Source: Rufibacter hautae
GTDB taxonomy: Bacteria; Bacteroidota; Bacteroidia; Cytophagales; Hymenobacteraceae
Direction of reading: 5' to 3'
NCBI RefSeq assembly: GCF_008271695.1
Contig: NZ_VKKY01000003.1
Coordinates: forward strand, 1,178,001 to 1,242,000
Length of the DNA: 64,000 nt
Position 1 is the stretch's first letter. Each line of letters opens with the position of its first letter. The position numbers and the translations under genes are program-made. The notes beneath the pieces are model-generated. The model was given only the letters and a program-made list of their open reading frames with translations. It did no database searches and was not told the DNA's origin. This document shows positions 46,537 to 56,676 of this stretch, in pieces.

Positions 46537-46650
46537 TTAGCGCGACTGCTGACGCACTGGAACGGGTACTGGCTGCAGGGTAGGACCGGTTAATCTTGAA
46601 ATCAATTCTTTCAGTAACGAAGCGATGGATGAAACTGTGTTGCTTGTCAT
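46537..46650 (-). CDS. small peptide A (37 aa), paralogue of the peptide at 56435
   Basis: Unannotated frame of 37 residues, too short for standard gene calls. Residues 6-12 (VSSIASL) and 25-31 (LQPVPVP, within TLQPVPV) match peptide B in the same order and spacing, so this is a real family and not chance. It ends with QQSR. Upstream is a diverged SAM-I-like leader. Downstream comes a strong terminator with no other gene in between, so the transcript is monocistronic. The same frame stays open for 23 further codons after the stop (to 46465), which may be a fossil extension. Function is unknown. Confidence 0.6.
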   Translation of the reverse strand: MTSNTVSSIASLLKELISRLTGPTLQPVPVPVRQQSR

Positions 46651-46664
46651 GGGTTTGTAAATAA

Positions 46665-46735
46665 AAGTTGGACAGGGTTGAGCAAGTGGGTTTCCCGTTG
46701 CCAGAAGTTCATAGAGCCTGTTCTCTCCCTTCTAC
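46665..46735 (-). ncRNA. diverged SAM-I-like riboswitch-type leader upstream of peptide A
   Basis: On the minus strand: AGAAG ... CUUCU (P2), an inner AGAG/CUCU helix, GUGAA-like UAUGAA and GGCAAC are kept, as in SAM-I riboswitches; a short GGG-AAA-CCC helix takes the P3 position. The ligand-site segment AAGGUGCUAAUUCC of copy B is changed to CACUUGCUCAACCC, so SAM binding is doubtful. Confidence 0.45.
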
Positions 46736-47401
46736 CATTGTACTCTCAACGCCGGTGGATCAAGAAGATTTTACGGCGCATGAATGAATATAGGAATTAA
46801 TTTTTACAATTCTTTTCAATTTTCATTCTTGTAGATACAACAATAAGAATAGCAAAGTCTGTTCCAATCTTTCTGAAAAACTTAAAAGTTCTCCAGAAAG
46901 AAATCAAAGAGTAATTCGACTGATTTAATTGCCTGGACGCTACAAAGTCCTATTTAGCCGTTTCACTTCCAAGATTGTCCTCTTTGCCTCTTTTCTGGTT
47001 GTCTCCCGCTTCTTCTTACGCCAAGTTTGTGAAAAGAACTGCCTTTCTTTATGCTTTTGTTAACGGGCGCTGACAGATTATTGCGGTTTATCACCTGAGT
47101 CAGGTTGTCTACCTGATAAGAACAACGATGTAGGACAGAAGTTTTACAGGGCAAAATAATAAACCGTGCTTCCGTTTTCTGAAAGCACCCTGAACCAGAA
47201 AGGGGAGAAAAGCAGTGTGCCCCGGAACAGCCAATCTGTTTAGGAGCCGATTCTTTAAAAATGACCTAGAAATGTTCTTCACCTACTGCACATTGAGGAG
47301 CCCATCTCACTGGGCGCTTCTTTTATTTTTCTGTACGGGTCGTGAAATGGGTATGGCAGAAGGGCATCCGTATGTAAAATCATTAAGTAGCTTTACGCTT
47401 C
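46736..47401. other. 666-nt region upstream of the LytS-like gene
   Basis: Holds the promoter region of the leader of peptide A (minus) and the 36-bp element at 47238. A 63-codon minus-strand frame (46963-47154) has no family features and was not called. Confidence 0.45.
47238..47273. repeat. 36-bp palindromic element, copy 18 (diverged)
   Basis: GTTTAGGAGCCGATTC arm and AAAAATGACCTAGAAAT arm. Keeps the length and the A/T tracts but not the arms' pairing. Confidence 0.45.
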
Positions 47402-54159: not shown

Positions 54160-55179
54160 TTAGGCCGTCACTTGGATGATTGACTCAGAGAAACTCTCCA
54201 TTTCCTCCAATTGCGGGCTGCACTGCAGCAGGAAAAAATCCACGCCTACTTTCTCGTACTCGCCAATGCGGTCCTGGATTTGGGCCGGGGTTCCGGTAAG
54301 TCCGGTGCGTAGGCCGCGGTTTGAAACGGAGTAGTCTTGCAAAGAAACCTGCTGCTCCAGTTGCGTGCCCGCCAGCCACTGCTGGTAGTTGCCGTACCCA
54401 GCTGCCGAAGCGTTTACATCAGTAATGCGCTCCAGTTCTTTCTTCACTTCCTGCTCTGTATCACGCACGATGGAGTAAGCGGCTACCCCAAATTTCATCG
54501 GCGGCAATCCGGCTTTCTCGCGGCGCTCGCGCATGTCTGAGATGCGGTTCCCGATGGTCTCGGGCGTGTCGCCGTGCATGACGTAGCCGTCGCACTGGTT
54601 AGAGATAAGCGTTTTAGCGGCTTCTGATTCACCGCCGGCGTAAATGAACGGCTTCTTCTTGGGCTTGGGCTGCAGCACGTTGTCGGTGACCTGGTAGTAC
54701 TTGCCTTCATAGGTGAAATGGTCTTTCTCCCAGAGGTTCGTCACCACGTCCAGCCACTCTTTGGTGCGGGCGTAGCGGTCGTCGTGCTGCTCAAACTGGA
54801 TGCCGTATTTGGTGGCTTCGTCTTTCCACCAACTGGACACCACGTTCAGAGACAAGCGTCCGTTGCTAATCAGGTCAATGTTAGCGGCGGCTTTCGCCAG
54901 CAGCGCCGGGTTATGGAAGGTAGGGCGCACCGCCACCATGATCTCCAGTTGCTCCGTCACAGCGGCCAAAGCAGCGGCCGTAGACCAGGCATCCAAAGCC
55001 GGGGCTTCCTGGCCTTTGATGTCATTCAAATACAGCTCGGCGATGAGGGCCAGGCTGTAGCCCCAGTCCTCGCTGCGTTGCGCCAGTTGCTTCACGTAGT
55101 CCCAAGAGGTGGTCATTCCTTCATCGGGCACGTTGCGGAGCCAGCCGCCAAAAACAGGTAACCAATATCCGAACTGCAT
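54160..55179 (-). CDS. LLM class flavin-dependent monooxygenase, SsuD/SfnG-like
   Basis: FMNH2-dependent monooxygenase of 339 residues with the TIM-barrel luciferase-like fold. N-terminal FGYWLPVFGGWLRNVPDEG; then VAVRPTFHNPALLAKAAANIDLISNGRLSLNVVSSWWKDEATKYG, typical of SsuD (alkanesulfonate monooxygenase) and SfnG (dimethylsulfone monooxygenase), which free sulfite or methanesulfinate from organosulfur compounds. This suggests sulfur scavenging. A flavin reductase partner is not adjacent. It starts 3 nt after the ATP-grasp stop and lies under a SAM-I-type riboswitch, consistent with a sulfur role. Confidence 0.87.
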   Translation of the reverse strand: MQFGYWLPVFGGWLRNVPDEGMTTSWDYVKQLAQRSEDWGYSLALIAELYLNDIKGQEAPALDAWSTAAALAAVTEQLEIMVAVRPTFHNPALLAKAAANIDLISNGRLSLNVVSSWWKDEATKYGIQFEQHDDRYARTKEWLDVVTNLWEKDHFTYEGKYYQVTDNVLQPKPKKKPFIYAGGESEAAKTLISNQCDGYVMHGDTPETIGNRISDMRERREKAGLPPMKFGVAAYSIVRDTEQEVKKELERITDVNASAAGYGNYQQWLAGTQLEQQVSLQDYSVSNRGLRTGLTGTPAQIQDRIGEYEKVGVDFFLLQCSPQLEEMESFSESIIQVTA

Positions 55180-55182
55180 GGC

Positions 55183-56166
55183 TTATACCTCCTCTGTTAC
55201 TAGTTGGGCCTTTTTCTCCAGGAAGTCAACCAACTTCTTATGCGGGTTGAACCCAATCACGTTCACGGCATCGGCCACGAAGTTAGAAAGCGCGTTCACG
55301 TCATAGTAATAGATCTGTCCGTCACGGTCATCAATGATGTACTCAATGCCGCCCACGTCAATGCCGGAGTTCTGCATGATGGCCTCAATGGCGTCAATCA
55401 CCTCCTGCTCTGGGGTATAGCCTTCTACTTTCAGGCCGTTTTTAGGCGCGTCCAGGGCGCAGGCGTTGCGTACCAGTTCTACACCAGTGGTAGTCTGGCA
55501 GATATCAGCGGGGCACAGGTTGAAGCTTTCGCCGGTGGTGTACACTTTGATGGCGTACAGGTATTTGCCGCCCAACGTCTCCACGCGATGGATGTAGCCG
55601 CCGCGGGCCGGGATGAACTCCTGCACCAAAGCGGTGTGGTCAATACCTAAGTCAATCTCGTTGTTGGCCACGGATTGTTCCAAAGCTTCCACGGAGTCAT
55701 ACTTGATGATGCCCGCGCCGCTACCACCAATATTGGCTTTTACCACGATGGGGAAACGCAAGCCTTCGGCGGCTTTCACGGCCTGGGAAGCATGGTTGAT
55801 CACGCGCGCTTTAGGATACGGCAAACCCAGAGACTGCAACAAAGACAGCTGCAAAGCTTTGTTTGTCTCGTACTGGAAGGCTTTGTGGCCGTTCACGGTT
55901 GGGGTGCCGGTGCGCTCCAGGTGGGCGAGTAAGCCCAACGTATAGAAAATGCCGTTCTCGTTGCCCCGCAGGTAGGCAGAAGGGCTCATGCGGTTGAAGA
56001 ACAAGCTGTATGGGGTTTCGTCTTCGGCCAGGTCATAGGTGTGCTCGGCGGCGTTCAGGCGTACATATGGAAGGCCGCGGGCGTCCAGTTCCTCAAACAA
56101 AGGCTTGAACCAGTCTGGGTGCTCGTGGTAGATGGCAATGGGCTTTACGGATGCTGAAGTTGACAT
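55183..56166 (-). CDS. RimK-like ATP-grasp protein
   Basis: A 327-residue ATP-grasp ligase. Landmarks: HPDWFKPLFEELDARGLPYVRLNA (N-terminal domain), PVVKANIGGSGAGIIKYDSVEALEQ (ATP-binding loop), ALVQEFIPARGGYIHRVETLGGKYLYAIKVY and GGIEYIIDDRDGQIYYYDVNALSNF (metal-binding Glu and Asn). Close to the RimK/glutathione-synthase group, which makes amide bonds between a carboxylate and an amino acid. The substrate cannot be predicted. Its pairing with a sulfonate-type monooxygenase is conserved-looking: same strand, 3 nt apart. The ligated product may be a sulfur-containing peptide or an amino-acid conjugate. Confidence 0.8.
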   Translation of the reverse strand: MSTSASVKPIAIYHEHPDWFKPLFEELDARGLPYVRLNAAEHTYDLAEDETPYSLFFNRMSPSAYLRGNENGIFYTLGLLAHLERTGTPTVNGHKAFQYETNKALQLSLLQSLGLPYPKARVINHASQAVKAAEGLRFPIVVKANIGGSGAGIIKYDSVEALEQSVANNEIDLGIDHTALVQEFIPARGGYIHRVETLGGKYLYAIKVYTTGESFNLCPADICQTTTGVELVRNACALDAPKNGLKVEGYTPEQEVIDAIEAIMQNSGIDVGGIEYIIDDRDGQIYYYDVNALSNFVADAVNVIGFNPHKKLVDFLEKKAQLVTEEV

Positions 56167-56434
56167 ATTCGTTCGTGTATTACTTGTGGTGTGTGTATTT
56201 AGCTAATCTCTATAGGTGTAGAGGAGTATTGTTCAAGAAGCGAAGGTAAAAGACCTTTTCAGGGCTGTTTTTACAAAATCAGGTTAAAAACGGAAGTTGG
56301 AGTGGGCACCAAAGTGCCAGCCGACGGCGAGGAGGGAAGAGCTGCTAATTTGGCTCATCATGAACCGAGGTACAAAACTGGAAATTCAGATGTAACAGAG
56401 CAGGCTTCTTCAGAACCCAACCGACGCGTGCGCC
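56167..56434 (-). promoter_or_regulatory. 268-nt leader between peptide B and the ATP-grasp gene
   Basis: Contains a short GGCACTTTGGTGCC hairpin (56305-56318), a T-run 12 nt downstream on the minus strand (56286-56290) and a 36-bp element (56255). These may form the terminator or anti-terminator of an attenuator that reads peptide B translation. Confidence 0.35.
56255..56290. repeat. 36-bp palindromic element, copy 22
   Basis: CTTTTCAGGGCTGTTTTT arm and AAAATCAGGTTAAAAA arm; in the leader of the ATP-grasp operon. Confidence 0.5.
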
Positions 56435-56557
56435 TCAGCAACAACAGCGGTTCTGCTTAGACACAGAAACGGGAACAGGCTGCAAGGTTTGACCAATCAA
56501 TCCGGAGATCAGATCGTTCAAAAAAGAGGCAATAGAAGAAAGGGTGTGCTGCATCAT
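56435..56557 (-). CDS. peptide B, 40-aa leader peptide ending Cys-Cys-Cys
   Basis: Unannotated frame of 40 residues: MMQHT, then LSSIASFLNDLISGL, IGQTLQPVPV and a tail of SVSKQNRCCC. The last three codons before the stop are TGT TGT TGC, all cysteine. The peptide is homologous to peptide A (46537), sharing SSIAS and TLQPVPV in order. It begins 12 nt after the SAM-I-type riboswitch and ends 268 nt upstream of the ATP-grasp/monooxygenase operon. Tandem Cys codons before a stop are a recognised attenuation device: slow decoding when Cys-tRNA is scarce changes downstream RNA folding. Alternatively it is a small functional peptide or a modified-peptide precursor. Confidence 0.65.
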   Translation of the reverse strand: MMQHTLSSIASFLNDLISGLIGQTLQPVPVSVSKQNRCCC

Positions 56558-56569
56558 GGGTTTTCTTAC

Positions 56570-56676
56570 GGTTTATATTTCCTAAATGCTTTAGGCAGGA
56601 ATTAGCACCTTGTCTTTGTAGGTTGCTAGAAGTTCACAGAGCCTGATCTCTCCCTTCTTCTTTATAAATCAAAACC
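56570..56676 (-). ncRNA. SAM-I (S-box) riboswitch
   Basis: Minus-strand RNA matches the SAM-I core in order: P2 AGAAG/CUUCU; inner helix AGAG/CUCU; GUGAA; AGCAACC; AAGGUGCUAAUUCCUGCC. The same conserved blocks occur in the Bacillus yitJ S-box (GAAGC/GCUUC, AGCAACC, AAGGUGCUAA). A plausible P1 pairs GGUUU near 56672-56676 with AAACC near 56570-56574. P3 is unusually short (about UACAAAGACA). It ends 12 nt before peptide B. It likely senses SAM and couples sulfur status to the downstream genes. Confidence 0.75.

What the first reader, a model, noticed from the sequence alone, without database searches (positions are those of the whole stretch)
56435..56676. SAM-I riboswitch joined to a 40-aa peptide ending Cys-Cys-Cys, upstream of a sulfur-type operon
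A clear SAM-I core (AGCAACC and AAGGUGCUAAUUCC) is followed by a short frame with three tandem Cys codons before the stop, and then by ATP-grasp and SsuD/SfnG-like monooxygenase genes. This gives two sulfur sensors in series: SAM by the riboswitch and Cys-tRNA by ribosome stalling at the Cys codons. Poly-Cys leader peptides are known in actinobacteria, but I know of no such pairing with a SAM riboswitch in Bacteroidota.
Basis: partly seen in the sequence, partly recalled or inferred. Interest (0 to 1): 0.85.

Follow-up and report, generated by a model that had tools for sequence, protein, structure and literature searches.

The report
SAM riboswitch joined to poly-cysteine leader
Some sulfur-related genes in this bacterium start with an RNA sensor for the methyl donor SAM followed at once by a tiny gene ending in a run of cysteine codons, a pairing that recurs in related bacteria and looks like a two-input gauge of the cell's sulfur supply.

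Summary
Window 56570-56670 (-) is a full SAM-I riboswitch (76.5 bits, cut-off 44.4). Twelve bases later comes a 40-codon ORF ending Cys-Cys-Cys-stop, then ATP-grasp and SfnG/SsuD-like genes. In this genome 4 of 5 SAM-I elements are followed by a poly-Cys ORF; the fifth (metH) is not. Of 115 Cytophagales SAM-I loci examined, 40 carry one; the tight form of the test finds 0 in 541 same-strand and 1 in 1533 antisense windows. Peptide bodies differ between genera; the Cys tail stays. Such leaders precede metY, cysH, permease and ATP-grasp genes among others, and 0 of 46 Met-branch genes against 40 of 69 others. In the Rufibacter group cysH has a poly-Cys leader without SAM-I; in sister genera SAM-I is there too. 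Best reading: SAM-bound P1 blocks leader translation, and the Cys codons gauge charged tRNA-Cys, so genes are on when both are scarce. Translation, stalling and the switching structure are inferred; no common terminator or pairing was found. Each module is known; their pairing was not found in the library searched. New variant of a known kind.

The parts
56570..56670 (-). SAM-I riboswitch aptamer
   Evidence: cmscan RF00162, 76.5 bits against gathering 44.4, E 3.3e-16
56435..56557 (-). 40-codon leader ORF ending Cys-Cys-Cys-stop; start codon 12 nt after the aptamer
   Evidence: same arrangement in two further genomes of the genus; dN below dS
56438..56446 (-). three tandem Cys codons TGT TGT TGC directly before the TGA stop
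56167..56434 (-). 268-nt stretch between leader stop and ATP-grasp start; no intrinsic terminator found, fold not better than shuffles
55183..56166 (-). ATP-grasp (RimK-like) ligase gene
   Evidence: PF08443 31.6 bits; NCBIfam rimK_fam 65.8 bits, below its cut-off 143.4; nearest solved chains weak
54160..55179 (-). luciferase-like flavin monooxygenase related to SfnG/SsuD
   Evidence: PF00296 5e-61; TIGR04021 SfnG 252.5 bits, below its cut-off 382.95; nearest solved chains 3rao and 8vw6, the latter named alkanesulfonate monooxygenase
46537..46650 (-). Cys-free paralogue of the leader peptide (MTSNTVSSIASLLKELISRLTGPTLQPVPVPVRQQSR), a stand-alone small gene followed by a terminator-like hairpin and T run
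46659..46745 (-). SAM-I-like 5' leader of the paralogue, far below the Rfam cut-off (24.1 bits, E 0.55)
   Evidence: (L032 1620-1706)

Best explanation
It is a two-input sulfur leader: a SAM-I riboswitch whose 3' P1 strand ends shortly (12 nt here, 7-14 nt in most relatives) before the start codon of a poly-cysteine leader peptide. Inferred: bound SAM stabilises P1 and keeps ribosomes from starting the leader; when SAM is low the leader is translated and its terminal Cys codons test charged tRNA-Cys. With Cys plentiful the ribosome finishes and leaves the following untranslated RNA open to down-regulation (Rho-dependent termination or occlusion of the next start); with Cys scarce the ribosome stalls over the Cys codons and the downstream genes are expressed. 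Output is highest when both SAM and Cys are scarce. Shown here: the anatomy, its recurrence, its position rule and its gene preference. Inferred: every step of the mechanism.
For: SAM-I 76.5 bits. 4 of 5 SAM-I in the genome have poly-Cys ORFs, the metH one not. Of 16 ATP-grasp orthologues found in 60 family genomes, 15 have SAM-I (13 of 14 scanned; own locus; G014), and all 15 have a short ORF with at least 3 Cys in its last 6 residues, with bodies unrelated outside the Rufibacter trio; the 16th (L083) has neither. Cytophagales: 40 of 115 SAM-I loci examined. Controls, tight criterion (start within 20 nt): 0 of 541 same-strand windows, 1 of 1533 antisense, 2 of 2300 dinucleotide shuffles; loose criterion: 0, 5 and 12. 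Start codon at +7 to +14 in 37 of 40. Gene choice: 0 of 46 Met-branch against 40 of 69 other genes, Fisher 2e-12; 49 of 69 by a relaxed criterion that hits 28 of 3761 control windows. Cys is 55% of the last 10 residues against 1.2% of the body, Met 8.5% against 1.7%. dN below dS in 9 of 9 leader pairs, two nearly equal. cysH: leader without SAM-I at 6 of 6 loci of the own genus found; SAM-I at 14 of 14 other-genus loci scanned, 13 with a Cys-rich leader. In those 6 leaders the Cys codons can form the 5' arm of a hairpin, with one double compensatory change in L353. The genome has Rho. Precedent: SAM-I with the ribosome-binding site in the 3' side of P1 (PMC2258182, passages).
Against: No translation or reporter data. 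No shared expression platform: terminator-like hairpins in 11 of 40 gaps against 4.9 expected (a looser scan gave 17 of 40 poly-Cys, 11 of 29 metH and 0 of 8 metX leaders), none in the window; tail-gap pairing not locus-specific (mean rank 0.471, p 0.23); folds of the window leader no better than shuffles (z 0.51 and 0.14). In the cysH leaders a second hairpin did not hold in the tested register, and pairs of the first break in L354 and L356. Tail Cys codons are TGT 150: TGC 58, against 14: 74 in large window ORFs and 27: 62 in the main ORFs, which could mean a nucleotide-level constraint. 12 of 36 metY loci lack a strict poly-Cys leader. Some genes behind such leaders have no plain sulfur role (M14 peptidase, NhaC-type antiporter, redoxin). 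Here the first 37 residues are a conserved peptide family, unusual for a mere leader.
Confidence: 0.75

Rival explanations
1. The peptide is itself the product: a small Cys-tailed protein (thiol or metal binding, or a RiPP precursor for the ATP-grasp and monooxygenase) whose synthesis is switched by SAM.
For: Here the body belongs to a family found in all 16 genomes of the genus that were searched, with a stand-alone copy in the window; median dN/dS 0.13 over the 69 of 78 pairs with a usable ratio among 13 stand-alone copies (three divergent copies L019-L021 left out); an ATP-grasp gene follows.
Against: At ATP-grasp loci in other genera the body is unrelated while the Cys tail stays; the same tail type precedes metY, cysH, permease and TonB-receptor genes.
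Confidence: 0.12
2. The TGY run is conserved as RNA, not as codons: it pairs with the aptamer core or another part of the leader and belongs to the SAM switch.
For: TGT strongly preferred in tails; GTTGC, complementary to GCAAC in the aptamer core, slightly more common than expected (30 against 24.9, p 0.047); tail-gap duplexes somewhat better than with shuffled gaps (mean z -0.81, 30% below -1.5) and tail plus next 60 nt folds better than with shuffled downstream (mean z -1.04, n 40).
Against: No specific pairing with the aptamer (mean z -0.26) or the next start region (z +0.34); own gap ranks no better than gaps of other loci; the run is in frame with a start just after P1 and next to a stop; poly-Cys occurs without SAM-I at cysH.
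Confidence: 0.07
3. Only SAM matters: the riboswitch controls a translated leader that influences the next gene by translation passing or re-initiation, and the Cys run has no sensing role.
For: Interplay of a B12 riboswitch with a translated uORF, including termination-reinitiation, is reported in M. tuberculosis (PMC11260477, abstract and section list).
Against: Does not explain the Cys enrichment or its absence from the 46 Met-branch loci, nor poly-Cys leaders without a riboswitch at cysH.
Confidence: 0.06

Closest known systems
SAM-I riboswitch (S box, RF00162)
   Same: Complete aptamer well above the Rfam cut-off; P1 next to a translation start, a layout known for the class (PMC2258182, passages)
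   Different: The first ORF after it is a poly-Cys leader, not the metabolic gene
Poly-Cys leader ORFs of Actinobacteria (PMC1262725, passages; Canestrari et al. 2020, seen only as a reference-list entry)
   Same: Run of Cys codons near the stop of a short ORF upstream of cys genes, no conserved terminator, Rho suggested in PMC1262725
   Different: Here in Bacteroidota and behind a SAM-I riboswitch; the gene set includes metY, permeases and TonB receptors
uORFC-8-2 motif before cysS of Rhodobacterales (PMC8632094, passages)
   Same: Tandem Cys codons in a uORF as a proposed tRNA-Cys gauge
   Different: That motif has an intrinsic terminator; no riboswitch is mentioned in the passage
Tandem SAM-I / T-box(Met) elements (PMC9481103, passages)
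   Same: Two-input control of sulfur genes: SAM plus tRNA charging
   Different: There the second sensor is an RNA that binds tRNA(Met); here a leader ORF with Cys codons
B12 riboswitch with controlled uORF, ppe2 of M. tuberculosis (PMC11260477, abstract and section list)
   Same: A riboswitch governs a translated leader needed for the next gene
   Different: B12; no amino-acid run is mentioned in what I saw

Membership tests
SAM-I riboswitch (RF00162) | Aptamer scores above the curated cut-off over the full model | tested here: met
   76.5 bits against 44.4, model 1-108 of 108
SAM-I riboswitch (RF00162) | Binds SAM and changes expression | not testable with these tools
   needs in-line probing and reporters
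Poly-Cys leader attenuator | Short ORF with a Cys run at its end upstream of sulfur genes | tested here: met
   in this window the downstream monooxygenase is only sulfonate/sulfone-monooxygenase-like
Poly-Cys leader attenuator | The ORF is translated | tested here: inconclusive
   dN below dS in 9 of 9 pairs, two nearly equal; no direct data
Poly-Cys leader attenuator | Output depends on Cys supply through the Cys codons | not testable with these tools
   needs reporters
Classical (intrinsic-terminator) attenuator | Terminator hairpin with U run between leader and gene | tested here: not met
   none in the window; 11 of 40 loci against 4.9 expected
Dimethylsulfone monooxygenase SfnG (TIGR04021) | Score above the curated cut-off | tested here: not met
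   252.5 against 382.95 bits

The most novel reading that the evidence does not exclude
Cytophagales run a modular sulfur regulon from their mRNA leaders: SAM-I alone on methionine-branch genes, a poly-Cys (often Met-containing) leader alone on some sulfate-assimilation operons, and SAM-I plus poly-Cys leader in series on genes feeding both cysteine and methionine, giving a NOR gate in which a riboswitch controls whether the amino-acid gauge is read at all.
Probability: 0.6. Interest if true: 0.82.

Novelty: new variant of a known kind. Interest (0 to 1): 0.74.

Why it matters
If true, a riboswitch and a ribosome-based amino-acid sensor are wired in series in many genera of one bacterial order. 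It predicts which genes respond to SAM, to Cys or to both, can be tested with reporters, and marks many short ORFs behind SAM-I riboswitches as regulatory.

Tried and rejected
RiPP precursor for the neighbouring ATP-grasp: not the leading reading because bodies are not conserved between genera. Intrinsic-terminator attenuator: no consistent terminator. Pairing of the Cys run with the aptamer or the next start: not supported; locus-specific tail-gap pairing: not supported. Base composition: C exceeds G in 38 of 40 gaps, mean C-G 0.089 against 0.046 in 71 leaders of non-poly-Cys loci and 0.030 in main ORFs; compatible with Rho but not decisive. A genome-contig scan with the peptide alignment gave 11 loci, 10 named Rufibacter or Sabulibacter and 1 in a Roseovarius bin inside a longer frame, taken as chance. 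Neighbourhoods of 11 ATP-grasp loci were enlarged; genes beyond the pair looked different from locus to locus by eye, and the crude ORF filter hid parts of some loci, so I draw nothing from it.

Full report
Check of the observation. The SAM-I riboswitch is real: RF00162 at 56670-56570 on the - strand, 76.5 bits, full length, the only Rfam hit in the window at gathering threshold. Twelve bases after the aptamer starts a 40-codon ORF that ends Cys-Cys-Cys-stop. It is followed by a RimK-like ATP-grasp gene and a luciferase-like monooxygenase. The monooxygenase is SfnG/SsuD-like but below the SfnG cut-off; its best solved relatives are 3rao and 8vw6, the latter named alkanesulfonate monooxygenase. 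'Sulfur-type operon' is therefore likely but not shown.

The genome. The window lies in a genome of the Rufibacter group (the same-genus relatives that carry names are called Rufibacter or Sabulibacter). It has five SAM-I elements. Four are followed at once by a short ORF ending in a Cys run: the finding (CCC), L002 (CCCC, before an M14-peptidase gene), L003 (CCCC and a second ORF ending CCC, before a gene of the TonB-receptor cluster) and L005 (CCCCR, before a gene of the metY cluster). The fifth, L004, precedes a metH-type gene and has none. A genome-wide search for (TGY)3-stop gave 53 sites in any frame; 51 were examined, and 6 end an ORF not covered by another open frame of 110 aa or more: four behind three of the SAM-I elements, one before cysH-cysD, one (L347) not followed up.

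Orthologues. The ATP-grasp gene was found in 16 of 60 family genomes. SAM-I is upstream in 15 of 16 (13 of 14 scanned; own locus; G014), and all 15 carry a short ORF with at least 3 Cys in its last 6 residues: CCC in three genomes of the own genus, CCCCC in the fourth (named Sabulibacter), CCCCCC, CCFC and CCCCCCC in genus g3, and CCC to CCCCC, once followed by WLA, in g5 and g6. Outside the first three the bodies are unrelated to the window's. The locus without SAM-I (L083) showed no such leader in the upstream stretch scanned.

Wider survey. From a phylum search (198 genomes) and an order search (98 genomes) I examined 185 SAM-I loci: 5 own, 25 family, 85 other order, 35 other class, 35 other phylum. 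They are the 60 loci returned automatically (best scores) plus 120 places picked from the printed lists plus the own five. The lists were capped and not all printed places were taken, so this is not a random sample; three ATP-grasp loci already held were left out. Poly-Cys ORFs (at least 3 Cys in the last 6 residues): 4 of 5, 11 of 25, 25 of 85, 3 of 35 and 0 of 35. The three class-level cases stand before metY- or cysH-cluster genes. In the 115 Cytophagales loci that is 40, and all 40 also pass the tight test (start within 20 nt of the aptamer). Controls for the tight test: 0 of 541 same-strand windows, 1 of 1533 antisense windows, 2 of 2300 dinucleotide shuffles; for the loose test 0, 5 and 12. 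Start codons lie at +7 to +14 in 37 of 40, and 34 of 40 are ATG.

Which genes. I clustered the downstream proteins and named representatives. metY, cysH and homoserine dehydrogenase pass NCBIfam cut-offs; the TonB-receptor, permease, reductase, M14, NhaC, redoxin and desulfurase names come from Pfam; the cystathionine- and metZ-like names are best hits below cut-off; metH, metX and metK were named from recalled sequence features only. Strict poly-Cys counts in the 115 Cytophagales loci (relaxed Cys-rich counts in brackets): metY 24 of 36 (25), cysH 3 of 7 (7), permease 4 of 5 (5), TonB receptor 2 of 5 (4), metZ-like 1 of 5 (1), ATP-grasp 2 of 2, cysteine-desulfurase-like 0 of 2 (1), sulfite/nitrite reductase, M14 peptidase, NhaC-type antiporter and redoxin 1 of 1 each, three unnamed genes 0 of 3; metH 0 of 29, metX 0 of 8, metK-adjacent 0 of 4, cystathionine-synthase-like 0 of 3, homoserine dehydrogenase 0 of 2. 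Grouped: Met branch 0 of 46, others 40 of 69 (Fisher 2e-12; relaxed 49 of 69; the relaxed criterion hits 28 of 3761 control windows). Related loci are not independent and I chose the grouping after seeing the genes, so the p value is indicative.

Cys leader without riboswitch. In this genome the cysH-cysD operon is led by an ORF ending RMRFCCCSSCCCCC with no Rfam match up to E 1 (cysD named by recall). A cysH search gave 23 loci in 41 family genomes. The six found in the own genus (of eight such genomes searched) all have this leader (CCCCF at the end in L353) and none has SAM-I. Fourteen of the 17 other-genus loci were scanned: all 14 have SAM-I and 13 have a Cys-rich leader; four of them (L357, L360, L362, L365) are also in the survey above. 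Of the three not scanned, one shows such a leader and two do not. So cysH carries the Cys leader alone or with SAM-I: the modules are separable. In the six own-genus leaders the Cys codons can be the 5' arm of a hairpin whose 3' arm follows the stop. Five fold so, L356 only in part; L353 changes both sides of a pair and loses its last Cys doing so; single pairs break in L354 and L356; a second hairpin tested did not hold in that register. Six related sequences are little, but this is the clearest hint of a switching structure.

Translation and tail. Nine leader pairs all show dN below dS, two of them nearly equal (L191/L146 0.156 against 0.168; L166/L170 0.404 against 0.447). Cys makes up 55% of the last ten residues and 1.2% of the rest; Met is also enriched (8.5% against 1.7%). 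Tail Cys codons are mostly TGT (150 of 208), whereas large window ORFs use TGC (74 of 88) and the main ORFs of the loci TGC 62 of 89. This fits slow-codon tuning or an RNA constraint; I cannot tell which.

Mechanism. Established: SAM-I riboswitches can hold the ribosome-binding site in the 3' side of P1 (PMC2258182, passages). Here P1 ends just before the leader start, so SAM most likely blocks leader translation (inferred). Cys-codon leaders are proposed gauges in Actinobacteria, with Rho suggested because terminators are missing (PMC1262725, passages), and with a terminator at cysS in Rhodobacterales (PMC8632094, passages). Here terminators are likewise not a common feature, the gaps are richer in C than in G and the genome has Rho, so Rho-dependent termination or translational coupling are the likeliest outputs (inferred). 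Tests of pairing between the Cys run and the aptamer, the next start or the gap gave no general rule.

Novelty. Library searches with terms such as polycysteine, poly-cysteine, SAM riboswitch, SAM-I riboswitch, leader peptide, uORF, cysteine codons, attenuation and Bacteroidetes listed no paper whose title, abstract start or opened passages report a SAM riboswitch followed by a poly-Cys leader; I opened only the papers cited here. A tandem-riboswitch survey lists SAM-I with T-box(Met) or AdoCbl, and its text holds neither 'uORF' nor 'leader peptide' (PMC9481103, term search and passages). Most subscription papers are not held, and Canestrari et al. 2020 was seen only as a reference entry. The pieces are known; the serial pairing and its gene logic appear new.

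A local twist. In three genomes the first 37 residues of this leader belong to a small-protein family found in all 16 genomes of the genus that were searched, as a Cys-free stand-alone gene (one distant copy ends in a single Cys). It is followed by a terminator-like hairpin in the copies printed and, in the window, has a 5' leader resembling a decayed SAM-I. The leader here thus seems to have captured, or exchanged sequence with, that peptide 10 kb away (inferred). This does not change the main reading, since other genera have the same architecture with unrelated bodies.

Noticed in passing
46537-46745 (-): Stand-alone 37-aa peptide gene (ending LTGPTLQPVPVPVRQQSR) with relatives in all 16 genomes of the genus searched (median dN/dS 0.13 over 69 of 78 pairs of 13 copies), a terminator-like hairpin behind it and a SAM-I-like leader that keeps the P2-type hairpin and CAGG/CCTG segments but scores only 24.1 bits here and 28.0 in L031: a decayed or re-purposed SAM-I.
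   Followed up: partly
L052-L062 (other Hymenobacteraceae genera): Several short ORFs with C-termini such as LQPVPVRARR or LQPVPVRVRNNR followed by terminator-like sequence, apparently distant relatives of the Rufibacter peptide.
   Followed up: partly
L286 (- strand of G000:C1 near 772061): cysH-cysD operon of the same genome led by a poly-Cys ORF (CCCSSCCCCC) without a riboswitch.
   Followed up: yes
L003 (G000:C3:1138955-1139380): Two successive poly-Cys ORFs behind one SAM-I element, before a gene of the TonB-receptor cluster.
   Followed up: no
leader tails of 40 loci: Cys codons in the tails are mostly TGT although large window ORFs prefer TGC.
   Followed up: partly
L347 (G000:C3:532417): A 59-aa ORF ending LCCC, not among the SAM-I loci; gene context not examined.
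   Followed up: no
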